Positions 19,001 to 47,804 of a DNA stretch of 64,000 nucleotides are shown in pieces. A program made the translations under genes and the position numbers. Origin of the DNA: Sphaerolaimus hirsutus (lineage: Eukaryota; Nematoda; Chromadorea; Monhysterida; Sphaerolaimidae); the NCBI GenBank assembly GCA_964036195.1, contig OZ038455.1:9689855-9753854 (forward strand), in the 5' to 3' direction. The first letter of the stretch is position 1. Every line of letters starts with the position of its first letter. The notes beneath the pieces are model-generated. The model did no database searches. It was not told the DNA's origin and saw only the letters and a list, made by a program, of their open reading frames with translations.

Positions 19001-22000
19001 TGGCGCTGTTTCTTGTTCAAAATGTTCACCTCACAAAACGATTTGTAAATCGCCGGGGGCTTCCAGGACACATTTCCATCGTGGCTGATCGTTATGTCGT
19101 TCTGGATGGTTATGTCAGGGTCGCCAGCAGCGCTGGGAAATTAAAGCACTTGTCATTTTAAGCCAGTTCACATCATAATTCACAGTTGAGTTGACACAAC
19201 AAATGGGAGTCAACTCACTTGTTATATAGAACGATGTCAGGTGTCCAAATCTCATCGGATGGAATGTGTACCCATTTTATTCCATCGTATTGGTCTGGAT
19301 TCCAGGTTAACCTCGGCTCAACCCACTTCTGATAAGAGGTGCGATACACAAGATAAATAGAACAGCGCCATTCCGTGAGTACCGTATATCCTCGAATAAG
19401 ACACCCTCGAATAACTCCCCCCCTTGGATAACTCCCCTCAAAAAAACTCCCCCCTCATGGGTGAAAAAGATGATACACAATTTACAAAAATGACAGATGG
19501 AAATACAAAAGAATGTTAATGCATGGCAGCGACAGCAGATTCATAACGTGTACAACTTTTTTTGTTGTTGTTGAACTGTTCAATACCTGGATTACATGAG
19601 TTGACGGAATGCAATCATACAATGAATCAAGTTTCCTGAGGAAAAAATAACTCCCTCCCTTGAATAACTCACCCCCTCAAAAACTCTGACGAAAAAATTA
19701 CTCGGATGGAGGATATACGGTATTCATGAACATAACAATTAAAGATGTGCAAGCTAACCATTTCCAGCCATAAATTAGTTGTGAACACCTGATTCTTTTC
19801 ATCCTGCGTTTAAAAATGTCAAGTTGAGTAAAGTCGGCAGACGTATCGCCCTACAAACATTTGCGTCAGTCTCTCCAGTGGAGAGTGCATGACGGCATTA
19901 GGTATTGTGAGTTGTGACGCAATATTTTAACGATTGGAATAGATCGGGTCACGTATGAAAACTTGGCGCTTATCCCAGTTACCAGTTGCGTATTATACAA
20001 ATGAGAGTGAAAACTGAAGGTTAGCTAAAAATCGTTAAAATTTGCTTGGCTTTGCCAATTTCCACCTTGATAAGCACTATTTTTGTTTATATACGTGGTT
20101 ATATAGCTATTGTGAGCCTATTTTATTCATATTAATAGCGGATTTCGAAATTTTGGCCGGCTGCCAAGTTCTCTTCTGTTGGAACGGAGCCAACGAATGA
20201 AAAATAAAAACAAAAACGGTAGCTTGAACGGTAAAACCGTAGTTTGAACGGCCAAATTCTTTACGAGCAACGTTGAAAATGTAGATAACTAGGGCGTGGC
20301 ACGCACGGACGCAGCGAAACGTCCATTTTTCTTTTAATATGAATTTCTTTTTCAATTTCTAGCGTCCGCTTGGGACACAAGTTTCGTTGTTCGCTCTATT
20401 CACGAGCGAATTCTAACTCTCCGATTTTGTAGGGTGAAATGTCCGCCGACTTTAACACGTGACAAGCGACGTAAACAGTTGGCAAAAAAGCATTCGGGTG
20501 CCAAACACGCACCTTGCAAAGTGTAAAGTTTTTACGTCAATTATCATGCAAAACGTCAAAAGTACAGCAATAGATAATTTCGTTTTTAGTCATTTTAAAT
20601 GACATTTTGTCATGAATTTTCACCGGCTACTTTTTACTCAACCAAATTCCACTATGGCAAACTGCCAAGTTTTACCGATCTCACACCTACTCGTTGGATG
20701 AGCGACAAAGTAAGGCAACGGAAAAGCGACTACCGATTGAATTCGCAACGCACAATGGTGAATTCACCGAAGTGAATATCACAGGTGTACGCTACGTCAA
20801 TTAAGTTAGCTTTTTAGCGAATGGCGTCTTTATCAACGCACCAGCGATTAGTTGAATGTCTAATTTACACCAAGGGGTCCGAAGTTTTTAGAAGAGATTT
20901 TATTTTTAGGCGATTTTTAGACTCAGAATTCACACATTTAGATAGAACACAGGGAACACACTGAGAGCGAGTTTCTAACCAGCGGCACAAAACCTTCGAA
21001 AAAACTCCAAGAAAATGAAACCGAAGCAATTTCGACTGAATCGACCCCTACTCTAAATTACGGTACGCTTTTATACGCAACAACATAAGCCAAGTCCAGA
21101 CAACACTTCCACATACCACGAGAAGCATGCTTACAAACGACTTTACAGACACACGGAATTTTAAAACGGGCATACCTAAAATTATTCACGGCGTCAGTTT
21201 ACAGGATACGTCGATCAACTACACAAAAACACAAAGAATTCACGCGCCAAAAATCGGGATGGGAACAAGAGCGAGTACAAAAATAGAAAATGAGAAAATG
21301 AACGAATGCGACAAGAATAAAAAGAACAGGAAAAACACACACGAGATACTGTAAAAACTTGTTTTAGCGCGAAAAAAATGGCGGGCGATTCAAATTTTAC
21401 TCAGCGAACTCTACCGAAATCCCAAAACCACCTCCACGAACGGGGAAACACACAGCAATTAGCGAAACAAATAAACACGCGAACAGTAATCCCATCAGCA
21501 AAAAGAGCGTATAATAAACGAAAATGACGTTGATATCCAAAGCGTAAGAAGCACACGTATTATTAATGCACAACGAAAAAATGTCGTAAGCGGGATAATC
21601 CATGATAAGATTAGGATACCGGTAAGGCGAATGGAATTAACTTTCACACTGACTGTCAAGGAAAAAATGAATTACGGTACCTTTTTAAAGACTCTTAGCG
21701 GAAATTCTATCAGAGTGATAAAATAAATACGCACTCAAATCAGATCACCTTTACACTTATCAAAATATTCGGGGAAAAAACAGGAAAAACAAGCGGCTTA
21801 TTATTTCATCTCTTTGTATAATAAAGATCAACCACGAAATTTGCATAAATTCCTAAATATCCAAATGTCAAGTTATCAGTTTTCTAGGGGAAAGGAAAAT
21901 ACAAAAAAAATTCAATCTAGGATTAGGTAGATAAAAAAAATAGCGAAGTTGCAAACGTAAAATCAAATAAAAATTAACATACTCGAGTTTTACCTATTCC

Positions 22001-25000
22001 CTACCAAACCTAAAGTTAAAATGAATATGAAGTCGGTATAACGCTTAACAGAAATACGAACGCAAATGATTGGCAACTTGAAAGTTTATAAATTTCAATC
22101 TTTGTAGCTTAAATACATGTTTAGATTGCATGACTTTTTGAAGTTTAAAACTAAAAAAACAAACTCAAGTGAATCCACTGCCACATGCCGAAACGCAACA
22201 GCCATTAACTACCGAAGGCACTTATCACGAAAATGACCACTCCCGCTGCTACACCACTCACTCTGCTACCAGAATGTTAATTTGTCAGCCACGGCTTTCT
22301 GATCCCATACGCACTGTGCAAAAACCACACCCCGAAAATACCGAACTGCTCAACTCACTCAAAAATAGGTACACTTGTCACTGTATGGGTGCTTGTTTCG
22401 ATGAGATCGGCGGACTGGGCTGTTCTCACAACAAGCCAAGGGAGTAGGCATTTAGACATGCGATCATGCCTGTCGAGTTAGACTCGATTCTTTTAATTAC
22501 CTCTCATTTTCAACACCAATCATCATCGCACCTCTATAATCAGTGTACCTTTGTAAAATCGCTTGTAAATTAACTTTTGTTTCCCAATCCGGAAATGCAG
22601 CAATGCACAGTACATACTAGATCAATAGCCACGGCCTGCAATTCAAAAGAATGCAGCGAAAGTTAGTCAAAACTCAACCTATGTGCCCTCAGCTATCACT
22701 GACCATTCACGCACTACGACACGTAACCGCAGCGTCACTCTTTTTACTTAGAGAAAATAACTGAAACTTTGTTATGCAATCCAAACCGCTAGTAGAAATA
22801 GAAAAAATACTTTAAAATTAAACTGTCACAATTAAAATTGTTGCCAACTCACTTGTCTCACTTTCAAAAAAAAAAGAACTACCTAATTAAAAAAATATTC
22901 TAAACAAATAAAAACAACTATTTACATCACAGCGTCAACTTTGTGTCAGATCCTCAATACCTCCAATCCTTCCCTTGGCCAAAAGAAGACACACATAACA
23001 CAATGGGGCACCGGAAAAACGGAAATGCACGTTGCCACGTTGCCGACGTAGCGCAGCGACGTAGCCGAAAACGTCAACGCCACATTGTTCGCCCACCGAA
23101 TCGCCCAAAACCAACGTCGAAGTAGAACTGAAATGTTTAAATTATTGTAAGCTCGGAAGTGTAAACAACCCTCTACATAAATTCATTAAGTGTACTACAT
23201 ATACATTTACGCTTAAAATTTTTGAAATTTTACAATTTTTGACACCCACTTTTGCTCACAAACTCCACCAGCCATACATTTTACCTCCCGGCTAAAATCG
23301 AAACGCAGCAAAACTATTAAAGAAACGAATTGAAATAAATTCCCGTTTTTTAAGAACTATTTTAAACCAATTTTAAATTTGTTGACAACCATTACGCATT
23401 CTTCCACACTTTGTTGAAAACACAAAGAAAAACTTTTGAACCGGTAAAACTCAATGAAAATTCAATTTTCAATTCAACAAAAGCTCAATTCTACTGGTAA
23501 AACGTTCGCTCTAACAAAAACGACTAAAAACAAAAACAACAAAAACAAAAAAAAAATTCCTGTACACCTAAATTACCATTACTCCGCTTCCATCTCCTCC
23601 TCTGGCTCCAAACCTGCCAAAGTTGGAGTCACTGGCAGGGGCGGACTCTGTTCCTCTTGCGGTGGCGGTGACGCGCCAACTACAACAACCCGAACAGGTT
23701 GCTGCAGCTGCGGTGCGGCCACTTCCTCAGGCTGCTCCTGCTCCTGCTCATCTTCCTGCATGGGCTCAGCAGATTCATTGGCCTCCTCCTGGATGGCGTC
23801 CATTTGTCTTAGCATCTGCCGGTCTGGGCTCATGGACTGTTGCTGTCGCTCAGCGTCCAACTCGGTGTTCAACTCGCCCGCCATTTGAATCAACTCATCC
23901 AATTTTTCTCCAATAATTGCATTGTTGGCCTCTTCAGTATCTGGCTCTGGTTCTTGCTCTTGCCGTTGACCTTCCATTGCCGGTTCCTGCTGTTGAGCAC
24001 CTTGTTCACTTTGCTCCTGTTCCACCTCCATCACTTCCTCCTCCTGGTGCGTTTTCTGTTTGTGTGCCGGTACGGGCGGCGCGTGTTCAGACTCCGAGGC
24101 CGAATCGGTCTCACTCGATCCCGATTTTGACGAACCCGACGAAGAACTAGAGGAAGAGGAAGAACTCGACGAGGGAGAGCGACGACGACCGCGATACCGA
24201 CGCCGAGACCGAGAACAACTCGCTTTTTCATCCGCGCGCGGCTGAACTTTCTCTGACTCCTCCTCCTGCTCTTCCGGCGGCAACATTTGCACGTCTGGGG
24301 AATCGGGAGCGGGAACGACGTCAGCGTCTGGCTGAGGGGACGCTCGCTGTTCGCTCACATCCACCTCCTGAACTTCTTCCGGCGACGGCGGAACCTCATT
24401 TTCTTCTTCTTCTTGCACGGGCGGAGCGGGTTCTTGCAGATCGACCGGGGCACTTCTCCAGTGGCCCAGAAACCTAGCCAACGGGTCACTTTCCCACAAA
24501 TGTCGCTCGTGGTACGCAAAAACGCGTCCCTTTCCTAATTCCACCGCCACAAAGCGCCAGAAAAATTCAGAATGCAGCACAGTAGCGGCGTTCATGATCA
24601 CGACTCTGGCCGTTTTGGCGCGAGACGTGGCCACGTTGCACCGCTCCGGCATCGCCAAAAAGCCAATTCTGTCCATCACATCGCGCTCGCGCTGCGACGG
24701 GTGTCCAGTAGCGTCCACGCGCGGCGCGCTACCCCTCACACATGACACAATCACCACGTGCGCTTCACGAGCTTGCGCTCGATCAGCAGTGATGACTTTT
24801 TTCCGCCAAAACGCTGGGGTCGCTAAATAGCCAGGGAACCCCTCACCCCCTAACAACTGCGCCCAGCTCAATCGCACCAATTCGTCAATCACTCTTCTCT
24901 CCTGCGCTGAATAGAAACACACAACCAGCAGCGAATCGGCGCTTTCTAAATCACTCCACGGAACGACATTCTCGCCCTCGCTGTTCAGCGCCAAAATGAC

Positions 25001-28000
25001 AAATTGCTGCACAGCGCGCACCACAATGTCTACCTCCGTCAAATTTTTAACAGACACGCCCTCGCTCGTTTCGAAACCCATGTGCACGATCACAGAAGAC
25101 AAAGGCACCTGATCTGCACCGCAAGCCATGAGCGGCAAAGTATCTCGCCACTGACTGTAATCGTGAAACGCGCGCAATTGGCCATCGTACGCAGCGACAG
25201 AATTCGCTTGAATCAGCGCGTCGTGGCCGCGGAAAACAGTCTCGAGCTTCAGAATTGGGCACAGCACACCTTCCACCAACCTGTTGATCAACGATGGATC
25301 AGGTTTCAGGATTGGGGCAATCCATGAATGCGGCCTGACCATTCGGGTCAACTGCTTGCTATCGCCAAACAAAAGCACCAAGCCATTGTGGGGGAGTCGA
25401 GCGTTTGAAACAGCGCCAAAAATGGCAGTTTCATCCGCCAGAGACGCCTCGTCCACAAATACCGCGGCATATTTCAAAACTTGCAGTCGCTTATCGCGCG
25501 ATGAATCCAAGGTCACATGGACTTGGCCTGGCTGCAGCACATTCAACACCACCTTATGCAACCTAGTAGCCACCCTAACGAGGCGTCGCATTTCGCGCTT
25601 GTAAATTTTGCCCCACACCTGGTTGTCATCGACAAAGCCAGCTGCGGCCCCCCACGCCTGCACGCCCTCCTCTTGACCATCGTCCAGTGGCACCAAATCA
25701 TCCTCGTCGTCTTCGTCGATGGACAAACGAACCAAAGGCAACTGCGACCGAATGGCTTCGAAAATGTCGGCGGGGTGCTGATTGTTCGCGATGATCTCGT
25801 TCAAAGTGTCACAAATATGGCGTTGAGCGGTAAAGCGTTCATAAGCAGTTAGCCAGTGGTCATTCAATCGGATCACATGCATGGGCATGTTTTGCGCGAT
25901 CAAATTCAGCAGCGGCAATTGCTGGAGCGTCATATCGACGTAGCGATCGTCAACTTCCAACAATGGACTCAGCACGCGAATCGCGAAAGCAGCGCGCACC
26001 TGACAGAAACGCGCATAGCCAGGTGTTTCGAAATTCGGTTTGTTATCCATCGCAGTCCACGTCTCCCTACTGCGCAGCAAAACTTCCACAACCCTTTCCA
26101 AAGTAGGCAGACCGATGTCCGCCAAACTTTGCAACGATCGTCTAGCAGACTCATCAGCGGCCGAATTCACACTGCAAGTAATCATTGTGGAGTGGTAAAG
26201 CGCATTTTTGTTTGCATCAGAGGGCAATTCCCTCTTCAGCGGGTTCGGCGGGTCATTTTTCTCAGTAAATTTGAACGCAACCGCGTACGCACACTGACTT
26301 TGCACAGTCGTTTTACCGGAACCGAACAGTGAATCACACATCAACAATAGCGGCGCAGTTTTTCGCACAGACTTGATAACTGACGCAATCACACGCCCCT
26401 GCCCCTCCTGCGGCCGAAAATCACCCTGATGCGCTTGCAATAAATCTTCGCATGTGCCTCTGCGCACCTCTGCATACAACCCGTCAGACTCAATTTTTTC
26501 GAGCGTGCGCTGCCAATCAGTCTCAACTTGGTTCAACTGCTTGTGCAGCACTACCGCCATTTTGACCTGGTCTTCCACAGCGAGCATTCCGGTGTTGCTC
26601 TCGGTTGGCCGGTAACCACTAGGCCCCATTATGCACAACCGCTCCAAAATTTCCATGCGGCCATTGTAGCTAGGCGACAAAGCGGAACCGCGCACCATGT
26701 AATCGCAATTAGGCAGCAAATGCGGCGACAGCGCCTGCGGCACCAACACATCCGGTTTGGCGACCAGCTGCACCGCCTCGGCAGTGATGTCGGCGCTGAC
26801 CGTGCGTAAATTTATTTGCGGGCGGCCAGTCAGAGCACGCTCTTCCCCCCGGGGATCAGCTTCGACGATTTGTAGCGACGACATGGGCGAAGTAAAATTC
26901 AACATGTAGCCCTGCGCCTTATTCCTGTGCCACTCGGCCGTGTCGCGCATCGCAGCAGCTGGATTCAAATGCACGCGCTCCCACCTAATTATCGCAATTA
27001 ATCCCCGCGGCCCATTTTGCCAAGTCACCTGCGCGCGCACCGCTTTCGCCCTAGTCGCAGTGTATCGCAAATGCGCTTCGTGACACACGTTAGCAGCGGC
27101 CAAAAAGATGGAACGGAGCTGCAGCTGAGAAGTGAGACAATTTCTATTCATTTCGCCCTTCCACTCCATACCAGCCTCAATTTGCCGCGCCGAAAAAATA
27201 CGCACGCCATACGCATGACCCCAATAAAAGTTGTTAACCTTGCCGGCGTCATCGAAAGCGTGATACTCTACATGCGCCACACCTAATTGTCCGGCGTGCG
27301 GGTGTATGTCACTTTCCATGACATTTTCGCTGTGCGCAAAAATCAACTTTTCAGGGCCCGGATCCCGCTCGTCGGCGCCTTTGAAGGGGGGTGCACTGAT
27401 GTACCGCGAAGGGGTGAACGCTGCCCTCAAACGCAAATATCTCCACTTGGCCGGATAAGGATGATATCCTTCGCGATTTTCCTGTCCTCTCTGTGAAACT
27501 TCCGACGCTGGCTCATCGACGGAGAGGTCAACCTGTCCTTGCGAAACAATGACAACAGGGCGGCCCAAAAACAATGGCATTTGAGCGTCATTTTTCATAA
27601 TTGTGACGCCTCGCAATTCCCAATATTTCGGATTGGCGCTAACCCTACTGATACCCGTCGCGACAAAATGCATGCCGTGGCGGACAAGCGGCAAAAACAT
27701 GTCGTAAGCTTCGTTAGTCTCGCGATATTCCCTCAAAATTTTCTGCACCGACCGCTCACGAGCGCGCTCCGCTTTGTTGACCGAATAGGTGAAAAAGGGA
27801 TAAGCCGTTTCCGCTTCCGACCACTCCGGATAACTTTCCAAAAGCGCCTGCGCATCGCCGTCGAAACGAATGTGGCATTGATAACTGGTAGGACGCTGCT
27901 CGTTACCGACGTGAACTCGATCCACTATTCCCGACAACTTTTGGTTGATGACAAATTCAGGACAAGTCGATCGGGCGTTTCGAGGAGGATTGTAGGGCAG

Positions 28001-31000: not shown

Positions 31001-34000
31001 AAACCCAACAGCGCCTAGGAACGCTTTAACTTCACGCACACATACAGGTAGCGGCCAATCACTCAAATACTTTCGCTTGTCATCCGGTATACAAATCCCT
31101 TCACGCCCTACCATATAACCCAGGAATTTAACAGCAGTTGTGCGCGCGAAAAAACACTTTTTTGGGTGTATTTTAAAACTGCTACTTATCAAACGCGACA
31201 AAACCTGACTTATATCACTCAAATGATCTTCCCATGACCTACTGTAAATGAGCAAATCATCTATATATACCAACACATTTCGATGCAATAATCCAGCCAT
31301 TGTAACTTCAAAACAGCGCTGCGCTAAAGCCGGGGAACACTTTAATCCCATCGGCAAGCGTTTCATCTGAAATTGACCAAAACAATTACGAAACGACGTA
31401 ATATGTCTATCATCCGGATGCAGCGCAATGTTGTAAAACGCTTGATTGATATCGACACTGCTAAAAATATTTGCAACTGTGCAATGACTCTATTGTATCG
31501 TCTAATCTGGGCAGCGGAAATTGGGGAGCGTGAACTACTGCATTTAATCGTCGATAATCTATCACCATGCGCTTGGCACCATCCGGCTTAGTAACAACTA
31601 ATGTCGGCGCGCAGTACGGACTCGTACTGTGTTCAATGACGTCATGCTCAAGCAGGCAACTTAAATGCTTTTCTAAGTACTGCTGGTCATCCAAACTCAA
31701 CCTATACATTCGACACGCGACCGGAATTTTACTAGTCAACTGAAGTCGATAATCAACCAATTCACTGTATCCCAAATCATACTTATCCCTGGCGAAAGCA
31801 TCCTGATGAGTCAAAATTAACTCTTTTAATTGCTGGCGCTTAATTTCGTCCAATTCAACCGGTACTTCAAAATCCATTTCCCTCCCATCGGCACAAACCA
31901 CTTTCATAGTCGTATTCGCCGCTTTTGAAGGTACAGTGCCCTTCGTTGGTACTTTTTCCTCACTAGCTTCAAGTATAGTATCGGTAAAACTCATATCACG
32001 CTCGCGGCACTCTCGCACCCACTCAGCAGGCGGATCACCTCGACGCACTTGTAAAACACACTCCACTGGCTCTACGATGGCAATTTTCTGGCCCACCTGC
32101 AACTTTACTGGCACCTCAGTCACATTAACACACCTCACCGGAAATAATTCACTCGCGCTTTCATAAACAGCATTAGCTGCAAACACACCCGTTTTCACAT
32201 GAAATTCGTTCAAAGGCTCAATCGCAAACGTCAATTCATCAATTGGTTCAGATAATTTCGCACTAATTATCGTTTCATGCCGCGGCTTAATTTCAGTCGG
32301 TTCAGTCACAACTGCATAAATATGCCGTTCTTGCACTACAGGCGACGGGTTGTCAAAAGGCACAATCAACTTTTTACGCGCATCACCACTCTCAATTCGC
32401 AACTCACGCGCAGGCATATCAATAACCATATGCCTCAACACATCAGCGCCCAATAAAATATCGTCCGACAACCCGCTAATCACCTGAAACACAATAGAAA
32501 ATGCTTTCCCGGTAATCATCACTTGAAGTTCCAACTGACCCTCAATTTGCAATTTGCATTGAGACGCGCTTTGCAATCCCCCCACAGGCGTGACCTCATC
32601 AAACGCTATGCAATTATTTCGATGCCTAGCCAACACCAGCGGGCTGCACAATGACCTCATCGCACCTGTGTCCAACAGACACCTTTTGTATTCATTCCCC
32701 TCAATTTCTACCGTAATCGACGGACTATAGTAAATTGGCACGAGTTCTTTACGCTTAGCCGTAATACTTTTGATGTTCGCAATTTCTTCACTGGTCAGCG
32801 TGACTACATTCACCTTTTCCATGACGGCAGAACCTTTAGGAACGCGCAGCGGCGGCAAACGCTTAAATCTACTCACTGGCGTTTCTTCAATATCGGCGCC
32901 ATACCCTGAACTGTCAGCGCTAACTGGATTTAACTTTTGCGGCGGTGTCACGGGGGTCGCACCCCTTGCAGGATTGCGCCTATTTTCTATCGCTAACATG
33001 CGATTTAATTGAACCCGCAACACTCTCATTTTTATCCAATCACACACTGTGAACACTAAATACAACACCAGTTCACACAAAGCGGGCAGAATATATCTCA
33101 AAAACACGGAAGTGCACATTCCAGCGATAAATCCCTCAAGAAAATTTCGCACGGTCAAAATCCACTCATCTGACACTCCTTTTTTCTTAACAACGCCACC
33201 ACTTGGAACACCCAGGGCGTCAACACTTGCAAAAAACGTAAATAGACAGCACAGGAAAAACACACGGTTCAACACACTGGGCAACATACTCGGTTCCGAC
33301 CACGTTCGGTACAAAGTTGGCACGCTCGCTTCACAATAATCGGACAACACATACAATTCAGAATCAGATGACGTTCGCGACAAACTAATGTCCGGCGGTT
33401 CACACCTAAACGTATGCATGGTCAATTCTAACAGCGCTGCTAACTTAACATACGTCAACGTGTCCTCAGGGTCGTCATGCGGATGCTCATCAGCATGCTC
33501 ACAAAACCCGCTAATATTTAACCCCTGCAAACCCATGTGTTGCAATTGAGCCCACCACTTAGTTCGAAATATCATGCTATCTAACGAATGCGCATAAACC
33601 CAAGGCATAATCCAAGCCTCTCTTTCGAGCATGAATTGATGTTCTTGCGGCGTTATTTCAGGCGGATTGCATGGATCCTCTGCTTCCTCATCCGAACTTT
33701 CAAGACCTGGTAAAACCCTAATCATGCGCACATATTCCTTACTTTCTTGCACGCTGCGTGCATGATTCACTGAGTTCGCAGACACGCGCGTCGGATTTAA
33801 CGCAGTCAATTCAGTTGACGGAGGGGCCGCAATGGCCATTTGCGATGATTGAACTTGTTGCACTGGAGACCAACCAGTAGTTGACACTTGCGCGGGAGGG
33901 GGATAATACAGGTAAGGCGCCGCTTGCATGGAATATACAGGTTGCTGTGCAGAGCGCATCATGTTCGCTGGACCTCTAAAGTTATTCATTGGTCGCTGCG

Positions 34001-37000
34001 ACGGGCCGCGCCGAAAATTTCTAAAGCGCGCTCTTTCCTCTTCTGTCAATTTAGGACAATCAGAGCGAAAGTGATCATCTGCCCCACATTCATAACAGCC
34101 CTCATCAAATTTACGCGGCCTAAATTTGGAAACTGGTTTCGCAGCATTGTTACCTATCAATTGCTTTTCCAAGTCAACTAAACGCTTATCCTTATCCTCT
34201 AACTGCCTAGAAAGTTCTTCCAATTTCACTCGCTGTTCCTCAAACTTTGGATTTTCCGCCGCCGCCGGAATGGGCGGGGAATTTCCGAAAGCTCCCGCAC
34301 CCCCTAAAGCAAAAATTCGCTCGATTACCGAATTGGTGGCTTCTGAAACTAATTCAGCGTTGGATTTTGACTTTTTCTTACCACCCACTTTGTCCTTATC
34401 AATTTCCAGAAAACTTTCTTGCGTGCGCGCATTATTAACTACATCTTGAAACTTAGCCCCAGCAGTAATAGATACATTCCTACGAATATCAGGATACAAT
34501 CCACTAACAAATTTCGCCACTGCCATCTTTTCGCGTTCAAGTTTTGAAAGTTTCGGAAAAGCGTGTTTTATAATCTTCTCCAGCCGCACTGACCAATTTA
34601 ACACATCTTCATCTTCGCCCTGCTCACTACTAATTACTTCCCTTTGCGCATGATGCTCCGAAATGGGGTTAGTATAATAACGTTCCAAAGCATCCATGAA
34701 CTCCTCATAATCCAAATTGATCAATTCACTCTTATGCGACATGTAAATCGAACGCGCGCTGTCACGCAAATAAACCGGAAGCAGCGATTTTCGCTCATCC
34801 GTCGGAATTTGCAACGCCTCACAAACTGCGTCCCAATTTTTACGCCAATCAGCAAATTTATCATCAGCGCGCCCCTTAAATGGTATCACCTGTCCAGTAA
34901 GCGCGGTCATGGCAGCAGCATAACCCTCCCTACTAGTAGCAATCATACTCACAGCAGGTATAGGTGGTGTGGTAGCGGTAGAGCACCCTCCCGAATTAGA
35001 AACAGCGCTAATTATAGAATTAATCGCTTGCATGTCAGGCTTTTCTAAATGAATATACTCGGCAAATGCATTAATCGCGTCCACAATTTGACTCACATCA
35101 TTTCGCAAATTATAGCAGTCAACACCTAACTTTACTAATGACACTAATTTTTCGTCATTATCACTCATGTTCCCATTTTCCAAAGAACTCATGGGTCGCT
35201 GATTATACAAATAAGCGGCAATACTCACCGTTTGAGTCACAACCTGACTAAGGTTCCATTCTGACCCCTGAACCGAATTCCCCACTATTGACGAATTAAT
35301 TTGATTCAAAGTCAAATTTTTCGCTTGAATCAACAATTGCACCACATCGGGACCCGTGTTCACACCACTACCGCTCGCATGCGCCATACTCAAGGTAGAA
35401 TACCGGAAAAACACACACTCACTCGACGACTGGGTACTCGCGCTTCGGTACCCGGCACTCGCGCTTCGGTGCCCTAACTTACTTTGCCCTACGGTCGGGA
35501 ATGGCACCTCCGCACCCGCACTTGGCTTGCCTTGCTCAAAGGTCGGGAATGACTCCTCCGCACCTCTTTCAGGGACCGGTCCTTCCGCGTCCACCCAGCA
35601 GTTGACGTCAAAGTCGTTAGGTTCGTCACTCAACTCAGCGGTTCCCGGTTCAGAACAGTGCGCGTCCGTACTGAACTGAACCAATTTCGATTTTTTCTTA
35701 CTTTTCCGCTTTTCCCTTTTTTGCCCACTAATAATTTCGTCAGTTTCACGTCCCAAAACAAAAATATCCGTGCTTATCGGTTGCGTCGATCGGGTAGCCT
35801 TCCGTTCCTCCAGCCGGGCGGTGGTTCGTTTGTTCTCACCAGCGATTGTCAAACGGTGATCAGTCGCCTGAACTCACTGGGAATATTAAACAAACCACTC
35901 GCTGCTACCAGTTGTCATGAATTTTCACCGGCTACTTTTTACTCAACCAAATTCCACTATGGCAAACTGCCAAGTTTTACCGATCTCACACCTACTCGTT
36001 GGATGAGCGACAAAGTAAGGCAACGGAAAAGCGACTACCGATTGAATTCGCAACGCACAATGGTGAATTCACCGAAGTGAATATCACAGGTGTACGCTAC
36101 GTCAATTAAGTTAGCTTTTTAGCGAATGGCGTCTTTATCAACGCACCAGCGATTAGTTGAATGTCTAATTTACACCAAGGGGTCCGAAGTTTTTAGAAGA
36201 GATTTTATTTTTAGGCGATTTTTAGACTCAGAATTCACACATTTAGATAGAACACAGGGAACACACTGAGAGCGAGTTTCTAACCAGCGGCACAAAACCT
36301 TCGAAAAAACTCCAAGAAAATGAAACCGAAGCAATTTCGACTGAATCGACCCCTACTCTAAATTACGGTACGCTTTTATACGCAACAACATAAGCCAAGT
36401 CCAGACAACACTTCCACATACCACGAGAAGCATGCTTACAAACGACTTTACAGACACACGGAATTTTAAAACGGGCATACCTAAAATTATTCACGGCGTC
36501 AGTTTACAGGATACGTCGATCAACTACACAAAAACACAAAGAATTCACGCGCCAAAAATCGGGATGGGAACAAGAGCGAGTACAAAAATAGAAAATGAGA
36601 AAATGAACGAATGCGACAAGAATAAAAAGAACAGGAAAAACACACACGAGATACTGTAAAAACTTGTTTTAGCGCGAAAAAAATGGCGGGCGATTCAAAT
36701 TTTACTCAGCGAACTCTACCGAAATCCCAAAACCACCTCCACGAACGGGGAAACACACAGCAATTAGCGAAACAAATAAACACGCGAACAGTAATCCCAT
36801 CAGCAAAAAGAGCGTATAATAAACGAAAATGACGTTGATATCCAAAGCGTAAGAAGCACACGTATTATTAATGCACAACGAAAAAATGTCGTAAGCGGGA
36901 TAATCCATGATAAGATTAGGATACCGGTAAGGCGAATGGAATTAACTTTCACACTGACTGTCAAGGAAAAAATGAATTACGGTACCTTTTTAAAGACTCT

Positions 37001-38753
37001 TAGCGGAAATTCTATCAGAGTGATAAAATAAATACGCACTCAAATCAGATCACCTTTACACTTATCAAAATATTCGGGGAAAAAACAGGAAAAACAAGCG
37101 GCTTATTATTTCATCTCTTTGTATAATAAAGATCAACCACGAAATTTGCATAAATTCCTAAATATCCAAATGTCAAGTTATCAGTTTTCTAGGGGAAAGG
37201 AAAATACAAAAAAAATTCAATCTAGGATTAGGTAGATAAAAAAAATAGCGAAGTTGCAAACGTAAAATCAAATAAAAATTAACATACTCGAGTTTTACCT
37301 ATTCCCTACCAAACCTAAAGTTAAAATGAATATGAAGTCGGTATAACGCTTAACAGAAATACGAACGCAAATGATTGGCAACTTGAAAGTTTATAAATTT
37401 CAATCTTTGTAGCTTAAATACATGTTTAGATTGCATGACTTTTTGAAGTTTAAAACTAAAAAAACAAACTCAAGTGAATCCACTGCCACATGCCGAAACG
37501 CAACAGCCATTAACTACCGAAGGCACTTATCACGAAAATGACCACTCCCGCTGCTACACCACTCACTCTGCTACCAGAATGTTAATTTGTCAGCCACGGC
37601 TTTCTGATCCCATACGCACTGTGCAAAAACCACACCCCGAAAATACCGAACTGCTCAACTCACTCAAAAATAGGTACACTTGTCACTGTATGGGTGCTTG
37701 TTTCGATGAGATCGGCGGACTGGGCTGTTCTCACAACAAGCCAAGGGAGTAGGCATTTAGACATGCGATCATGCCTGTCGAGTTAGACTCGATTCTTTTA
37801 ATTACCTCTCATTTTCAACACCAATCATCATCGCACCTCTATAATCAGTGTACCTTTGTAAAATCGCTTGTAAATTAACTTTTGTTTCCCAATCCGGAAA
37901 TGCAGCAATGCACAGTACATACTAGATCAATAGCCACGGCCTGCAATTCAAAAGAATGCAGCGAAAGTTAGTCAAAACTCAACCTATGTGCCCTCAGCTA
38001 TCACTGACCATTCACGCACTACGACACGTAACCGCAGCGTCACTCTTTTTACTTAGAGAAAATAACTGAAACTTTGTTATGCAATCCAAACCGCTAGTAG
38101 AAATAGAAAAAATACTTTAAAATTAAACTGTCACAATTAAAATTGTTGCCAACTCACTTGTCTCACTTTCAAAAAAAAAAGAACTACCTAATTAAAAAAA
38201 TATTCTAAACAAATAAAAACAACTATTTACATCACAGCGTCAACTTTGTGTCAGATCCTCAATACCTCCAATCCTTCCCTTGGCCAAAAGAAGACACACA
38301 TAACACAATGGGGCACCGGAAAAACGGAAATGCACGTTGCCACGTTGCCGACGTAGCGCAGCGACGTAGCCGAAAACGTCAACGCCACATTGTTCGCCCA
38401 CCGAATCGCCCAAAACCAACGTCGAAGTAGAACTGAAATGTTTAAATTATTGTAAGCTCGGAAGTGTAAACAACCCTCTACATAAATTCATTAAGTGTAC
38501 TACATATACATTTACGCTTAAAATTTTTGAAATTTTACAATTTTTGACACCCACTTTTGCTCACAATTTGACACTTCACTTTATATGTAGGTACTTTACA
38601 GGGTGCGAAACTATCCCCACCCAGACCTACCACATCAATGATACGGATGAGCGAGGCTGCAAATTGTATTGTAACAATATCCGTGGAATTGCGCACTGGC
38701 CTGGGCATCTTATTGTAATCATACATGAGATCATCGTACAACTGCGCCTGCCA
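12852..38753 (-). CDS. nicotinic acetylcholine receptor alpha-type subunit, spliced gene
   Basis: A cation-channel-family Cys-loop subunit of the cell membrane. I traced eleven exons: 38753-38631, 19803-19759, 19328-19219, 19132-19030, 18961-18768, 18392-18140, 18010-17820, 17205-16973, 16601-16506, 14373-14210 and 13028-12852. They sum to 1689 nt and every splice phase agrees, giving 562 residues plus stop. The 45-bp and 110-bp exons are the classical sizes for this family. The Cys loop has exactly 13 residues between its cysteines, and the vicinal SCC in loop C marks an alpha-type subunit. Four membrane helices are present. Oddities: M2 position -1' is Lys rather than Glu, 9' is Val, and the M1-M2 linker is about three residues short. 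An 18-kb retrotransposon occupies intron 2. The signal-peptide exon is not settled. Confidence 0.9.
13077..13461. mobile_element. TACCGTATTT-family MITE in nAChR intron 11
   Basis: Begins TACCGTATTTCCTCG and ends CGAGGAAATACGGTA, with TA at both ends and C-run subterminal blocks. It starts 49 bp upstream of the exon 12 acceptor. Confidence 0.8.
13674..14117. mobile_element. hAT-like MITE, GGAAAACGG word family, nAChR intron 11
   Basis: Ends TAGGGCGTCAAC and GTTGACAAGCTA (imperfect inverse). Flanking octamers are GCCTCAAA and GTCTCAAA, 7 of 8 identical. The interior is mostly TTTTCCGTTT and its inverse. A better-preserved relative is at 60831-61302. Confidence 0.75.
14210..14373 (-). CDS. nAChR exon 11: MA amphipathic helix
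   Basis: Encodes the cytoplasmic amphipathic helix before M4 ([20 protein letters not shown]). The acceptor is TTTGCAG and the donor GTGAGT, phase 0. Confidence 0.88.
14680..16202. mobile_element. second-level hAT-like insertion (AATAAAATAAA words)
   Basis: The target duplication CTCTGGAC flanks it at 14672-14679 and 16203-16210. Ends are CAGGGTTGG and CCAACCATG. Subterminal parts are AATAAAAT repeats on the left and mirrored on the right. It contains a third element at about 15200-15879. Confidence 0.82.
15200..15879. mobile_element. third-level insertion with AAAAGTACCGATCTACA repeats
   Basis: The ends are inverse copies: AAGGGTGTGCTTCTAAAAGT and ACTTTTAGAAGCACACCCTT. The word AAAAGTACCGATCTACA recurs about eight times, mostly in the left half, with an inverse at the right end. 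No coding frame. Target duplication is only partial (CATAT). Confidence 0.7.
16506..16601 (-). CDS. nAChR exon 10: cytoplasmic loop
   Basis: Encodes [19 protein letters not shown] and a short tail. The acceptor is TATTTCAG and the donor GTGAGC. A nested hAT-like insertion ends about 36 bp downstream of its donor. Confidence 0.82.
16973..17205 (-). CDS. nAChR exon 9: proximal cytoplasmic loop
   Basis: Begins [18 protein letters not shown], directly after the LPK of exon 8, and runs through a hydrophilic, poorly conserved loop to LLRSD. The acceptor is GCCTCAG and the donor GTAGGT. Its phase agrees with both neighbours. Confidence 0.85.
17820..18010 (-). CDS. nAChR exon 8: M2 end and M3
   Basis: Continues [20 protein letters not shown], then M3 and [16 protein letters not shown], ending at the start of the cytoplasmic loop (FLKCLPK). 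The acceptor is TGCGCAG and the donor GTGAGT. Confidence 0.94.
18140..18392 (-). CDS. nAChR exon 7: loop C, M1 and M2
   Basis: Encodes loop C with vicinal cysteines ([12 protein letters not shown]), then M1 ([19 protein letters not shown]) and most of M2 ending CVTVFFL. The M2 entry reads [10 protein letters not shown] where the family has SGEKxTLxIS. The donor is GTTAGT. Confidence 0.94.
18768..18961 (-). CDS. nAChR exon 6: Cys loop and loop B/F region
   Basis: Opens with [13 protein letters not shown], closing the 13-residue Cys loop, then [10 protein letters not shown] (loop B Trp) and a stretch ending DLRYYYQ. The acceptor is ATTTCAG and the donor GTGAGA. Confidence 0.94.
19030..19132 (-). 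CDS. nAChR exon 5: up to first Cys of the Cys loop
   Basis: Encodes [17 protein letters not shown], the beta-strand region before the Cys loop, and contributes the loop's first cysteine. The acceptor is TCCCAG and the donor is the weaker GTGAAC. Confidence 0.92.
19219..19328 (-). CDS. nAChR exon 4 (110 bp): ligand-binding domain
   Basis: Encodes the [11 protein letters not shown] and [10 protein letters not shown] segments of the ligand-binding domain. The acceptor is TTATCAG and the donor GTGAGT. It ends in phase 2 and completes an Asn codon with exon 5. Confidence 0.93.
19380..19722. mobile_element. TACCGTATAT-variant MITE in nAChR intron 3
   Basis: Ends TACCGTATATCCTCGAATAA and inverse GGAGGATATACGGTA. 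AACTCCCCCC and GAATAACT blocks lie inside. It sits between exons 3 and 4. Confidence 0.75.
19759..19803 (-). CDS. nAChR exon 3 (45 bp)
   Basis: Fifteen codons, [15 protein letters not shown], matching the family's DEKNQxLTTNxWL segment exactly in length. It is flanked by acceptor CGCAG and donor GTTAGC. It is too short to stand out as an ORF and is found only by homology. The giant retrotransposon lies between this exon and exon 2. Confidence 0.93.
19804..20607. other. residual nAChR intron 2 sequence left of the LTR element
   Basis: No gene or clear repeat seen. With the 65 bp on the other side (38566-38630) this would form an intron of about 0.87 kb without the insertion. Confidence 0.7.
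20604..20607. repeat. target-site duplication ATTT, left copy
   Basis: Four bases ATTT directly outside the left LTR, matched by ATTT at 38566-38569 directly outside the right LTR. A length of 4-5 bp is typical of Ty3-type integrases. Short AT words match by chance more often, so it supports rather than proves the boundary. Confidence 0.75.
20608..23260 (-). repeat. 3' LTR (2,653 bp)
   Basis: Copy of the LTR at 35913-38565, offset by 15,305 bp. An AATAAA on the minus strand at about 20899-20904 would lie in the receptor gene's sense direction and may terminate host transcripts. Confidence 0.95.
23261..23578. other. region between helicase stop and 3' LTR
   Basis: Non-coding on the element's strand. 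Directly before the 3' LTR the minus strand reads GGCTGGTGGAGTT, the best but weak candidate for the polypurine tract that primes plus-strand synthesis. Confidence 0.5.
23579..28135 (-). CDS. UPF1-like superfamily 1 helicase carried by the LTR element
   Basis: A 1518-codon intact frame in the env position. Residues 1-590 have no fold I recognise. The helicase core runs from about 590 to 1200: Walker [10 protein letters not shown] near 601, Walker B VFVDEAS near 891, motif [12 protein letters not shown] near 919, and motifs V/VI near 1135-1170 ([15 protein letters not shown]), the pattern of UPF1/SMG2-type DNA or RNA helicases. The insert between motifs I and II is long. The tail has an arginine-serine segment, a polyserine run, then Glu/Gln-rich acidic sequence. 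No signal peptide or membrane helix, so it is not an envelope. Its GC content exceeds that of the pol region. Probable role: ATP-driven nucleic-acid unwinding that helps the element or counters host RNA decay (inference). Confidence 0.9.
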   Translation of the reverse strand: MTSSGGVPMGGYGASSSSYRGGRIAKAPLKSWTSHGKQGGDTIPPLPYNPPRNARSTCPEFVINQKLSGIVDRVHVGNEQRPTSYQCHIRFDGDAQALLESYPEWSEAETAYPFFTYSVNKAERARERSVQKILREYRETNEAYDMFLPLVRHGMHFVATGISRVSANPKYWELRGVTIMKNDAQMPLFLGRPVVIVSQGQVDLSVDEPASEVSQRGQENREGYHPYPAKWRYLRLRAAFTPSRYISAPPFKGADERDPGPEKLIFAHSENVMESDIHPHAGQLGVAHVEYHAFDDAGKVNNFYWGHAYGVRIFSARQIEAGMEWKGEMNRNCLTSQLQLRSIFLAAANVCHEAHLRYTATRAKAVRAQVTWQNGPRGLIAIIRWERVHLNPAAAMRDTAEWHRNKAQGYMLNFTSPMSSLQIVEADPRGEERALTGRPQINLRTVSADITAEAVQLVAKPDVLVPQALSPHLLPNCDYMVRGSALSPSYNGRMEILERLCIMGPSGYRPTESNTGMLAVEDQVKMAVVLHKQLNQVETDWQRTLEKIESDGLYAEVRRGTCEDLLQAHQGDFRPQEGQGRVIASVIKSVRKTAPLLLMCDSLFGSGKTTVQSQCAYAVAFKFTEKNDPPNPLKRELPSDANKNALYHSTMITCSVNSAADESARRSLQSLADIGLPTLERVVEVLLRSRETWTAMDNKPNFETPGYARFCQVRAAFAIRVLSPLLEVDDRYVDMTLQQLPLLNLIAQNMPMHVIRLNDHWLTAYERFTAQRHICDTLNEIIANNQHPADIFEAIRSQLPLVRLSIDEDDEDDLVPLDDGQEEGVQAWGAAAGFVDDNQVWGKIYKREMRRLVRVATRLHKVVLNVLQPGQVHVTLDSSRDKRLQVLKYAAVFVDEASLADETAIFGAVSNARLPHNGLVLLFGDSKQLTRMVRPHSWIAPILKPDPSLINRLVEGVLCPILKLETVFRGHDALIQANSVAAYDGQLRAFHDYSQWRDTLPLMACGADQVPLSSVIVHMGFETSEGVSVKNLTEVDIVVRAVQQFVILALNSEGENVVPWSDLESADSLLVVCFYSAQERRVIDELVRLSWAQLLGGEGFPGYLATPAFWRKKVITADRAQAREAHVVIVSCVRGSAPRVDATGHPSQRERDVMDRIGFLAMPERCNVATSRAKTARVVIMNAATVLHSEFFWRFVAVELGKGRVFAYHERHLWESDPLARFLGHWRSAPVDLQEPAPPVQEEEENEVPPSPEEVQEVDVSEQRASPQPDADVVPAPDSPDVQMLPPEEQEEESEKVQPRADEKASCSRSRRRYRGRRRSPSSSSSSSSSSSSGSSKSGSSETDSASESEHAPPVPAHKQKTHQEEEVMEVEQEQSEQGAQQQEPAMEGQRQEQEPEPDTEEANNAIIGEKLDELIQMAGELNTELDAERQQQSMSPDRQMLRQMDAIQEEANESAEPMQEDEQEQEQPEEVAAPQLQQPVRVVVVGASPPPQEEQSPPLPVTPTLAGLEPEEEMEAE
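28136..28657. other. spacer between pol and helicase ORF
   Basis: About 520 bp, AT-rich, without an open frame. It contains the leader motif at 28140-28172 and could carry a splice acceptor or internal promoter for the helicase message. No strong acceptor was identified. Confidence 0.6.
28140..28172 (-). promoter_or_regulatory. leader motif before helicase start codon
   Basis: On the plus strand ACACTTCAAAGTAGAGCACC followed by GGAAAACACAACTT, within 5-40 bp upstream of the helicase ATG (28135-28133). It aligns with the Gag-proximal motif over about 30 positions with few mismatches. Possible roles are a shared initiator, splice-related signal or translation element. None can be chosen from sequence. 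Confidence 0.5.
28658..31366 (-). CDS. Gag-Pol, part 2: RT, RNase H, integrase
   Basis: A 902-codon frame. The same frame is open upstream to about 31475, so the Met used here is not the real start. RT catalytic YIDD lies near residue 34. The RNase H has its Asp/Glu/Asp/Asp set (ITDASK, a Glu in [23 protein letters not shown]). A linker of about 150 residues follows. The integrase has an HHCC zinc site (HPTAGH and CPSC), then catalytic D, D and E ([23 protein letters not shown]). The end carries a GPY-type module (HHYIGPYE). All catalytic residues I can identify are present. It makes DNA from the element's RNA and inserts it in the genome. Confidence 0.95.
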   Translation of the reverse strand: MKRLPMGLKCSPALAQRCFEVTMAGLLHRNVLVYIDDLLIYSRSWEDHLSDISQVLSRLISSSFKIHPKKCFFARTTAVKFLGYMVGREGICIPDDKRKYLSDWPLPVCVREVKAFLGAVGFFRRLIHKCAEYAAPLSNLTRTKTELGTEKYSGSTPVDLNANPAALEAFNKLKVMVAESPCIQYPDPSKPFIIITDASKVALAGILVQRAEPAAALHACSFYSRKLSEAQSRWPAITQEACAIFESIRNWHCYLAGRPFEVWTDAKSISWVKNPNLETHPHTGLHRFALAIQSYQVTFKHLRGKSNELADALSRRRDAPVEFDERVNLDEAFEEYAFDIPVDELARILTEEMALLTSEEHLACQAVAKAMARLAAAQNWLKHAKMKSLEPSVTVATELPVASVATVRAPHPMTMRVRSKKKVESNSENALKSPPKSDDAPKLMAGGRRSVQLIKKPEKLDALPPPITPIEELSRLQKEEPYIITIRRMCEESTLRRASPFFIDQFDVIRRDADPSILVGERKYDPACIPQSLVVTVLELAHNHPTAGHLGVMKTFERLREFAWFTNMRPECARWVSTCPSCNAKKGLRRSMKTQIQSRKIAKFPGDFIAIDAVGPLPITEKRNVHVLVFVDQCTRFGLAVPVPNLKQDTVAIAFLQHVLPIFGVPAVILSDNAPSFIGGIFAELLRYLNTVQHKCFNYTPKGNGLVERRNGVLMEIISHYVNGSHSDWDKHLGAAVYAYNTSMHPSMKVTPYALLFGSNSPSLWERMIKPTGNGTDKTDKPMAYSPFVSNLDARLSDVRTAAHSALQRAQEKECFYANRSARRLNLKPGQSVRVYSPRILRKLGRVKKFTHHYIGPYECLDYVHPIVTVFNRLSKKTYTVHADRVKLTNEPVNPTYSQIFG
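31461..35852 (-). CDS. Gag-Pol, part 1: Gag, zinc knuckle, protease, start of RT
   Basis: A 1463-codon frame starting 60 bp inside the 5' LTR end. The first ~155 residues are lysine- and serine-rich; a second plausible start is Met at 35387. A retrotransposon capsid-like region (about residues 320-480) is followed by one CCHC knuckle ([14 protein letters not shown], near 583). Unusually, two or three hydrophobic helices lie near residues 859-940, before the protease (LLDTGA, near 1056). The RT fingers begin near 1370 (VIDYRRLN). The frame stops at 31463-31461 inside RT. The next RT residues continue in the +1 frame after a run of five T, so one extra T at 31467-31463 best explains the stop, as mutation, assembly error or, less likely, programmed shift. 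Confidence 0.92.
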   Translation of the reverse strand: MTIAGENKRTTARLEERKATRSTQPISTDIFVLGRETDEIISGQKREKRKSKKKSKLVQFSTDAHCSEPGTAELSDEPNDFDVNCWVDAEGPVPERGAEESFPTFEQGKPSAGAEVPFPTVGQSKLGHRSASAGYRSASTQSSSECVFFRYSTLSMAHASGSGVNTGPDVVQLLIQAKNLTLNQINSSIVGNSVQGSEWNLSQVVTQTVSIAAYLYNQRPMSSLENGNMSDNDEKLVSLVKLGVDCYNLRNDVSQIVDAINAFAEYIHLEKPDMQAINSIISAVSNSGGCSTATTPPIPAVSMIATSREGYAAAMTALTGQVIPFKGRADDKFADWRKNWDAVCEALQIPTDERKSLLPVYLRDSARSIYMSHKSELINLDYEEFMDALERYYTNPISEHHAQREVISSEQGEDEDVLNWSVRLEKIIKHAFPKLSKLEREKMAVAKFVSGLYPDIRRNVSITAGAKFQDVVNNARTQESFLEIDKDKVGGKKKSKSNAELVSEATNSVIERIFALGGAGAFGNSPPIPAAAENPKFEEQRVKLEELSRQLEDKDKRLVDLEKQLIGNNAAKPVSKFRPRKFDEGCYECGADDHFRSDCPKLTEEERARFRNFRRGPSQRPMNNFRGPANMMRSAQQPVYSMQAAPYLYYPPPAQVSTTGWSPVQQVQSSQMAIAAPPSTELTALNPTRVSANSVNHARSVQESKEYVRMIRVLPGLESSDEEAEDPCNPPEITPQEHQFMLEREAWIMPWVYAHSLDSMIFRTKWWAQLQHMGLQGLNISGFCEHADEHPHDDPEDTLTYVKLAALLELTMHTFRCEPPDISLSRTSSDSELYVLSDYCEASVPTLYRTWSEPSMLPSVLNRVFFLCCLFTFFASVDALGVPSGGVVKKKGVSDEWILTVRNFLEGFIAGMCTSVFLRYILPALCELVLYLVFTVCDWIKMRVLRVQLNRMLAIENRRNPARGATPVTPPQKLNPVSADSSGYGADIEETPVSRFKRLPPLRVPKGSAVMEKVNVVTLTSEEIANIKSITAKRKELVPIYYSPSITVEIEGNEYKRCLLDTGAMRSLCSPLVLARHRNNCIAFDEVTPVGGLQSASQCKLQIEGQLELQVMITGKAFSIVFQVISGLSDDILLGADVLRHMVIDMPARELRIESGDARKKLIVPFDNPSPVVQERHIYAVVTEPTEIKPRHETIISAKLSEPIDELTFAIEPLNEFHVKTGVFAANAVYESASELFPVRCVNVTEVPVKLQVGQKIAIVEPVECVLQVRRGDPPAEWVRECRERDMSFTDTILEASEEKVPTKGTVPSKAANTTMKVVCADGREMDFEVPVELDEIKRQQLKELILTHQDAFARDKYDLGYSELVDYRLQLTSKIPVACRMYRLSLDDQQYLEKHLSCLLEHDVIEHSTSPYCAPTLVVTKPDGAKRMVIDYRRLNAVVHAPQFPLPRLDDTIESLHSCKYF
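35388..35416 (-). promoter_or_regulatory. leader motif before an internal Gag ATG
   Basis: Read on the plus strand the stretch is ACTCAAGGTAGAATACCGG followed by AAAAACACACAC. A closely similar stretch precedes the helicase start codon (28140-28172). Here it lies inside the longer Gag frame, just before the ATG at 35387-35385 (protein MAHASGSG). The core CACCGGAAAAAC also occurs in each LTR (about 38314 and 23009). Confidence 0.5.
35895..35910 (-). promoter_or_regulatory. primer binding site of the LTR element
   Basis: Two bases after the 5' LTR the minus strand reads TGGTAGCAGCGAGTGG, which begins with the TGG complementary to a tRNA CCA end. The complement, ending GCTGCTACCA, resembles tRNA-Leu acceptor stems. 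The tRNA identity is a guess from memory and needs a comparison with the host tRNAs. Confidence 0.7.
35913..38565 (-). repeat. 5' LTR (2,653 bp)
   Basis: Same length as the other LTR, and identical in every segment I compared, including four conceptual short ORFs that match residue for residue. It begins TGTGAGCAAAAGTGGG and ends TTCATGACA on the minus strand. An AATAAA lies near its downstream end (about 36204-36209) and could serve as the polyadenylation signal. Transcription start not determined. Confidence 0.95.
36702..36908 (-). CDS. small membrane-protein ORF inside the LTR (68 codons)
   Basis: Sense-oriented frame in the 5' LTR, repeated at 21397-21603 in the 3' LTR. It has one long hydrophobic stretch ([20 protein letters not shown]) after a short Cys-containing start, and ends SVEFAE. 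No homology known to me. It may be chance, but an LTR of 2.65 kb leaves room for genes, as in some retroviruses. Confidence 0.25.
   Translation of the reverse strand: MDYPAYDIFSLCINNTCASYALDINVIFVYYTLFLLMGLLFACLFVSLIAVCFPVRGGGFGISVEFAE
38566..38569. repeat. target-site duplication ATTT, right copy
   Basis: Partner of 20604-20607, immediately next to the CA end of the LTR. Confidence 0.75.
38631..38753 (-). CDS. nAChR exon 2: N-terminal helix and loop
   Basis: Encodes the extracellular start of the mature subunit, including [16 protein letters not shown] and ending IIDV. The donor is GTG/GTAGGT. The acceptor is ambiguous between three in-phase AGs (exon start 38753, 38747 or 38741). All require a phase-0 upstream exon. 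It is only 65 bp from the right end of the LTR element. Confidence 0.85.
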
Positions 38754-41165: not shown

Positions 41166-41311
41166 TTCCAGACCCTGTAAAATGTCATGCAAAGTGTCAA
41201 AAGTCATGAAAAATGCCCTGCAAAATGGCAAATCGGTTGCCATTTTGCAGGGCATTTTCCATGACTTTTGACACTTTGCGTGACATTTAACATTTTGCAG
41301 GGTCTGGGAGT
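41166..41311. repeat. near-perfect hairpin element (about 65-bp arms)
   Basis: The left arm CCAGACCCTGTAAAATGTCA... and the right arm ...CATTTTGCAGGGTCTGG are inverse over about 65 bp with a very short loop around ATCGG. Partial or full relatives occur at 38845, 42958, 43636 and 51425. Non-coding. Confidence 0.8.
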
Positions 41312-41506
41312 GCCCCCAGAATGATACGTAAAAGCCGGAAGTGCACACGCAATAAAAGAGCATCCTCCAAATTCACGCATGGCTGCATTATTGCATTATT
41401 CTGCGGCTCGGCCGGGAATCGAGCACGTGCTTATTTCAGGCGGCCGCGAAATAAAGGACTGAGAAATATGCTAGCGTACGGAAAGCAGCGAGCTTATTGT
41501 GAGCAA

Positions 41507-47800: not shown

Positions 47801-47804
47801 AAAA

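What the first reader, a model, noticed from the sequence alone, without database searches (positions are those of the whole stretch)
20608..38565. An 18-kb Ty3/gypsy-like retrotransposon with a UPF1-like helicase in place of env
Seen: intact-looking LTRs, primer site, full Pol with DDE integrase and GPY motif, then a separate 1518-codon frame with a complete SF1 motif set (Walker A near residue 601, DEAS near 891, GDSKQL near 919, NVATSRAK near 1162). Known: a third ORF in Ty3 elements is normally an envelope; an SF1 helicase is not part of the standard Metaviridae gene set I know. Inference: a lineage has captured or evolved its own helicase, perhaps for RNP remodelling, reverse transcription through structure, or escape from nonsense-mediated decay, which long multi-ORF transcripts would trigger.
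Basis: partly seen in the sequence, partly recalled or inferred. Interest (0 to 1): 0.92.

Follow-up and report, generated by a model that had tools for sequence, protein, structure and literature searches.

The report
Gypsy retrotransposon carrying a UPF1-like helicase
A recently inserted 18-kb Ty3/gypsy-type jumping gene carries, where an envelope gene would often sit, a large intact gene for a UPF1-like helicase motor; this is an unusual gene capture, but only one copy could be seen and the host is unknown.

Summary
One minus-strand LTR retrotransposon: 2653-bp identical LTRs (20608-23260, 35913-38565), AAAT target duplication, tRNA-type primer site, Gag with a zinc knuckle, PR-RT-RH-IN in Ty3/gypsy order. 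After pol comes a separate 1518-codon frame (23579-28135) with ordered SF1 motifs I-VI, matching Pfam AAA_12 (4e-19) and, weakly, the IGHMBP2 family (7e-9). It is a divergent UPF1-like SF1B helicase, not a UPF1 orthologue: motif V is altered and no zinc CH signature is present. It has no Viral_helicase1 match, unlike the helicases reported in insect LINEs. GC3 0.587 against 0.424 in gag-pol suggests a separate origin. RT is broken once by a frame change, so "full Pol" is only partly right. Identical LTRs and the enclosing duplication indicate that the helicase moved with the element. Not shown: other copies, host, expression, function; the host genome search did not complete and no structure was obtained. 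I favour an element-encoded RNP-remodelling helicase; evasion of RNA decay or silencing, or a one-off passenger, remain open. Verdict: new variant of ORF capture by Ty3/gypsy elements.

The parts
35913..38565 (-). 5' LTR, 2653 bp, TG..CA
   Evidence: 100% identical to the 3' LTR
20608..23260 (-). 3' LTR, 2653 bp
38566..38569 (.). target-site duplication AAAT (5' side)
   Evidence: read from printed ends
20604..20607 (.). target-site duplication AAAT (3' side)
   Evidence: read from printed ends
35893..35910 (-). primer-binding site TGGTAGCAGCG..., two bases after the LTR; its first 9 nt match the complement of the initiator tRNA-Met 3' end as recalled
   Evidence: tRNA identity from recall only
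31461..35387 (-). Gag-PR-RT(start) frame from its first ATG (residue 156 of the 1463-aa TTG-started frame 31461-35852)
   Evidence: PNMA-like capsid 3.4e-5, just below Pfam's cut-off
34056..34097 (-). CCHC zinc knuckle of Gag
   Evidence: pattern; Pfam zf-CCHC 0.0028, below cut-off
32664..32672 (-). protease DTG
   Evidence: pattern; Pfam gag-asp_proteas 0.045, below cut-off
28658..31489 (-). RT-RNase H-integrase frame, stop to stop (first ATG at 31366, 902 aa); YIDD, HHCC, D612 D672 E708, GPY in P0002 numbering
31440..31489 (-). stretch in which the RT reading frame is interrupted (change of frame beside a T-run)
   Evidence: three-frame reading; sequence
28136..28657 (-). 522-nt gap between pol stop and helicase ATG; several stops in each frame
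   Evidence: no splice acceptor above shuffles
23579..28135 (-). helicase ORF, 1518 codons (P0001)
   Evidence: AAA_12 4.2e-19, TIGR00376 7.3e-9, below that model's cut-off
26309..26332 (-). helicase motif I / Walker A SLFGSGKT (602)
25445..25462 (-). motif II VFVDEA (892)
25349..25366 (-). motif III GDSKQL (924)
25229..25246 (-). motif IV region LETVFR (964)
24764..24784 (-). motif V DRAQARE (1118), altered from QGxE
24617..24637 (-). motif VI NVATSRA (1167)
23582..24505 (-). helicase C-terminal tail (1211-1518), E/S/P/Q-rich with a basic-Ser stretch

Best explanation
A divergent Ty3/gypsy element acquired an intronless UPF1/IGHMBP2-like SF1B helicase gene downstream of pol, and it now travels as the element's third ORF. 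Shown: the gene lies inside one LTR-, PBS- and TSD-bounded unit, in the element's sense orientation, with an open frame and ordered motor motifs. Inferred: it is made from its own message or by internal initiation, binds element RNA through its charged, low-complexity parts, and uses ATP to strip proteins and structure from the unusually long genomic RNA in the Gag particle or nuclear RNP, helping packaging and reverse transcription (a job for which host helicases are otherwise recruited). An inhibitory effect on RNA decay or silencing may come along with it.
For: Identical 2653-bp LTRs and the AAAT duplication enclose everything, so the unit with the helicase most simply arose by one retrotransposition. 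The LTR pair is the only repeat of 60 bp or more in 18000-41000, so no second nested element with long terminal repeats shows (shorter duplications were not tested). Open 1518-codon frame. AAA_12 4.2e-19; IGHMBP2 family 7.3e-9. With the core alone 15 solved sequences came up to E 10: ten are NAM7, UPF1 or SMUBP-2 (best 5.5e-4), five are designed Pizza proteins, taken as chance. Residues of motifs I, II, III, IV and VI that carry ATPase function are kept (roles from general knowledge). Separate origin: GC3 0.587 against 0.424, 0 of 5000 block permutations as large; codon-use correlation with gag-pro 0.53 and RT-IN 0.40, against 0.86 between those two. [quoted passage not shown]
Against: One copy only; no relative with the same neighbours was seen, so selection for keeping the gene is not shown. 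In a protein database that includes animals only 3 of 3979 candidates reached E 1. Motif V has lost its usual glycine. No splice donor or acceptor stands out from shuffled sequence, so expression is unexplained. Pol is broken in this copy. Function was not testable.
Confidence: 0.42

Rival explanations
1. Counter-defence: the helicase protects element RNA. With pol ending about 5.4 kb before the 3' LTR, the genomic message has a very long 3' part that should attract nonsense-mediated decay; a UPF1-like protein without the CH domain could act as a decoy, or unwind double-stranded RNA before Dicer.
For: Gene order and distances; UPF1-type core without CxxC or CxxH. Insect transposon SF1 helicases of viral type weakly suppress silencing in plants (passages of PMC6338049 and PMC5563155).
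Against: The motor motifs are largely intact, which a pure decoy would not need. Those published helicases are of another family. Nothing here tests decay or silencing.
Confidence: 0.25
2. Passenger: one element copy picked up a host mRNA by template switching; the gene has no function for the element and is not found in other copies.
For: Different GC3 and codon use; intronless; only one copy seen; no relative found with it.
Against: The frame is open over 1518 codons with the motor motifs, sits in the usual third-ORF place between pol and the 3' LTR, and the nearest helicase found is only 28% identical over residues 880-1200, so no recent donor gene is visible in that database. The host genome could not be searched for a donor.
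Confidence: 0.25
3. Host gene or second transposon inserted into the element after it landed, or an assembly join.
For: Composition differs from gag-pol.
Against: No repeat of 60 bp or more around the helicase; no run of N inside the element (one search lists only 10548-10747); same strand as gag-pol; identical LTRs leave little time for a later insertion.
Confidence: 0.06

Closest known systems
Ty3/gypsy (Metaviridae) LTR retrotransposons
   Same: Gag with CCHC, PR-RT-RH-IN order, DDE/GPY integrase, LTRs, tRNA-type primer site, 4-bp duplication; Ty3 Gag-Pol is the best solved match
   Different: RT-RNase H sits on the second-longest end branch of a 121-row tree (2.45 changes per column); 2.65-kb LTRs; helicase third ORF; best protein match 37% over 35% of the query
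Bdelloid rotifer LTR elements with enzymatic ORF3 (Vesta, Juno; PMC5408684, abstract and passages)
   Same: an enzyme gene in place of env downstream of pol
   Different: there GDSL esterase or DEDDy exonuclease; here a helicase
Insect LINEs (TRAS, Jockey) and some LTR proteins with viral SF1 helicase (PMC4686597, PMC5563155, PMC6338049, passages)
   Same: a retroelement that has acquired an SF1 helicase; one passage reports such helicases fused to LTR-element proteins in Diptera and Hymenoptera, another viral helicase sequences close to plant LTR elements
   Different: those are described as of RNA-virus origin; here a separate ORF matching AAA_12 and, weakly, IGHMBP2 models, with no Viral_helicase1 hit
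UPF1/NAM7 and IGHMBP2/SMUBP-2 helicases
   Same: SF1B core motifs; best solved matches
   Different: match is weak (best 5.5e-4), no CH domain signature, long inserts, N- and C-terminal parts without a Pfam match above cut-off
Burro giant gypsy elements of planarians (PMC6431247, 12 of 20 matching places read)
   Same: gypsy element with many captured domains, one relative with homology to an AAA ATPase (midasin); membrane segments between Gag and PR recall their env placement
   Different: no SF1 helicase in Burro in the passages shown

Membership tests
Metaviridae / Ty3-gypsy | PR-RT-RH-IN order in pol | tested here: met
   (PR by its DTG pattern; Pfam match for PR below cut-off)
Metaviridae / Ty3-gypsy | RT-RH closest to Ty3 among solved relatives | tested here: met
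   7q5b Ty3 Gag-Pol 3e-43 and 4ol8 RT/RNase H (Ty3 by recall) 6.5e-30; next are foamy virus integrase entries from 3.6e-19
Metaviridae / Ty3-gypsy | LTRs, primer site, short target duplication | tested here: met
Metaviridae / Ty3-gypsy | unbroken pol reading in this copy (not needed for membership) | tested here: not met
   change of frame in RT
Errantivirus-type (env-bearing) | env gene downstream of pol | tested here: not met
   the third ORF has no hydrophobic segment above threshold and no env family at E up to 0.1; a diverged env elsewhere cannot be excluded
UPF1-like SF1B helicases | ordered SF1 motifs I-VI with UPF1-type core | tested here: met
   motif V altered
UPF1-like SF1B helicases | fold: two RecA domains plus 1B/1C and stalk | not testable with these tools
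UPF1 orthologue | N-terminal CH (Cys-His zinc) domain | tested here: not met
   no CxxC, CxxH or HxxC in 1518 aa
Viral SF1 helicase capture (TRAS type) | match to Viral_helicase1 (PF01443) | tested here: not met
   absent at E up to 0.1
Lineage with fixed helicase ORF | helicase present in several copies or relatives | not testable with these tools
   The genome search did not complete; the collections that give neighbouring DNA and were searched hold prokaryotes and viral contigs

The most novel reading that the evidence does not exclude
A deep Ty3/gypsy lineage has made a cellular-type UPF1-like RNA helicase its standard third gene, bringing its own RNP remodeller (and decay or silencing shield) instead of borrowing the host's.
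Probability: 0.4. Interest if true: 0.75.

Novelty: new variant of a known kind. Interest (0 to 1): 0.6.

Why it matters
Retroelements normally depend on host helicases such as UPF1 or MOV10-type proteins (recalled). An element that carries its own would let one ask directly which step needs the motor: packaging, reverse transcription of very long RNA, or escape from RNA surveillance. It would also add an RNA-surveillance-type motor to the enzymes that take the env place in LTR elements. Ten paper searches in an open-licence library showed no UPF1-type ORF3 in a Ty3/gypsy element among the titles and abstract starts listed; several lists were capped (for example 15 of 177 papers, 12 of 96), and subscription journals, preprints and repeat databases were not covered.

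Tried and rejected
Homologues: the helicase over residues 1-1230 found nothing among 8000 scored candidates; residues 880-1200 gave 3 of 3979 at E up to 1 (P0124 8.9e-17, P0125 4.6e-3, P0126 0.46), with no organism named, so their neighbourhood is unknown. The search for related loci: no relative of the helicase in genome contigs or viral contigs (and 49 by alignment), none of pol. Phages: 1 of 50,697 records, E 6e-10, 25.7% identity over half the core, an unannotated record; taken as a distant SF1 helicase, not followed up. PHROGs: none. Host identity: 10 flanking frames gave no Pfam match (227 frames of 70 codons or more lie in the whole window, so this is a small part); no tRNA or Rfam hit in the window. 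MAFFT alignments A1 and A2 misplace Walker A; a local-pair alignment of cut cores puts Walker A and motifs II-VI in register. The profile of A1 against solved chains is dominated by P0124-P0126 and was not used as evidence for the window's protein. PMC5031192 (passages) was read for UPF1 and retroelements and not used. Phylogeny against UPF1, SMBP2, MOV10 and senataxin: not done, for want of full sequences.

Full report
What is there. The window holds one complete-looking LTR retrotransposon on the minus strand. A self-comparison gives a single 2655-bp, 100% pair; reading the printed ends trims this to 2653-bp LTRs, 20608-23260 and 35913-38565, each starting TG and ending CA, with AAAT directly outside both. 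The primer site TGGTAGCAGCG starts two bases after the 5' LTR. The purine tract before the 3' LTR is weak to the eye (GGTGGAG).

Gag-Pol. The first frame (1463 aa from a TTG; first ATG at residue 156, i.e. 35387) has a PNMA-like capsid match just below Pfam's cut-off (3.4e-5), one CCHC knuckle and a DTG protease motif (both with Pfam matches below cut-off), and the start of RT (the RT start also matches the RT entry 4ol8, Ty3 by recall, at 3.8e-8). The second frame holds the rest of RT (YIDD), RNase H, the HHCC domain, a D-D-E triad and GPY. The best solved match is Ty3 Gag-Pol, 3e-43. Between them the RT reading changes frame once beside a T-run. This may be a real mutation or a sequencing error; it was not resolved and not mended. 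In the protein search 213 of 8000 scored candidates passed E 0.001 and 120 were listed; the best was 37% identical over 35% of the query, named Araneus ventricosus. In a quick tree of 121 RT-RH rows the window is the second-longest end branch, and its joining to P0013 (support 84) is flagged as two long branches meeting, so its subclade is unsettled.

The third ORF. After 522 bases without a long frame comes an open frame of 1518 codons ending 318 bases before the 3' LTR. Pfam sees AAA_12 (4.2e-19) and only a sub-threshold SR-25 match on the tail; NCBIfam sees the IGHMBP2 family at 7.3e-9, 34.6 bits against a cut-off of 348.9; the core alone picks NAM7 (5.5e-4), UPF1 and SMUBP-2, besides five designed Pizza proteins taken as chance. 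SF1 motifs occur in order at 602, 892, 924, 964, 1118 and 1167; motifs I, II, III and VI in order appear in 0 of 5000 shuffles. They align with those of P0124, P0125 and P0126, unlabelled relatives from the protein database, at 24-28% identity. Two departures: DRAQARE where those relatives have QGKE or QGRE, and S as the first residue of Walker A (shared with P0124). UPF1's CH domain signature is missing. So the motor is of the UPF1/IGHMBP2 kind but is not UPF1. The absence of a Viral_helicase1 match separates it from the helicases of RNA-virus origin that Lazareva, Morozov and colleagues reported in insect LINEs and some LTR-element proteins (passages read: PMC4686597, PMC5563155, PMC6338049). 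A single unannotated phage-labelled record encodes a distant relative of the core (E 6e-10); I take it as a sign of how widespread such motors are, but did not follow it.

Is it part of the element? It lies between pol and the 3' LTR in sense, no repeat of 60 bp or more flanks it, no gap lies in the element, and the LTRs are identical. Since both LTRs are copied from one RNA, the simplest history is that the helicase was inside the RNA that made this insertion. Its composition differs from gag-pol: GC3 0.587 against 0.424 with 0 of 5000 block permutations as extreme, and codon-use correlations of 0.53 and 0.40 against 0.86 within gag-pol. That fits acquisition from elsewhere, or separate translation demands; it does not date the event.

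How it may work. I favour an RNP-remodelling role (about 0.42): the core is a translocating ATPase by its motifs, and the tail is charged and of low complexity (E, S, P, Q rich, with a basic-serine stretch), as in many RNA-binding proteins. Escape from RNA decay or silencing is the main functional rival (0.25), and a passenger gene the main non-functional one (0.25). The route of expression is unknown: splice sites did not stand out from shuffles, and the gap holds several stops in each frame.

What is known nearby. Rotifer LTR elements carry esterase or exonuclease ORF3s (PMC5408684, abstract and passages), planarian Burro elements many captured domains (PMC6431247, passages), insect LINEs viral helicases. 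Capture of enzymes in the env place is thus a known kind; a UPF1-type helicase there was not in what my ten searches listed, several of them capped lists.

Limits. One copy, host unnamed, no genome search, no structure. The collections that give neighbouring DNA and were searched hold prokaryotes and viral contigs, so their silence says little about other animals. The protein database does hold animal proteins (named hits), so the mere 3 helicase hits there count mildly against a widespread, well-sampled lineage, within the limits of a word-based search.

Noticed in passing
33075-33287 (minus): Two hydrophobic segments (residues 856-875 and 908-926; the first looks like a signal peptide to the eye) sit in frame between the Gag knuckle and the protease; this recalls the env-like region placed there in planarian Burro elements. 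The same threshold also flags a stretch inside the integrase (650-671), so it is not specific for membrane segments.
   Followed up: partly
22236-22269 and 37541-37574: Inside each LTR lie two tandem 17-bp units resembling the primer site (CTGGTAGCAGAGTGAGTGG...), as if the LTR once grew by taking in an old primer site.
   Followed up: partly
6458-9514 (minus): Non-LTR (LINE) remains: RT (RVT_1 1.3e-27) and endonuclease (2.6e-8) in neighbouring frames.
   Followed up: no
44385-48069: Large tandem repeat array of related units, seen in the printed part.
   Followed up: no
41176-43804: Short inverted and direct repeat family, about 88-95% alike, perhaps a foldback or MITE cluster.
   Followed up: no
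P0124 (protein database): A 2294-aa protein model holding two full helicase cores and part of a third in tandem; source organism not given.
   Followed up: no
10548-10747: 200-bp run of N, probably a scaffold gap.
   Followed up: no
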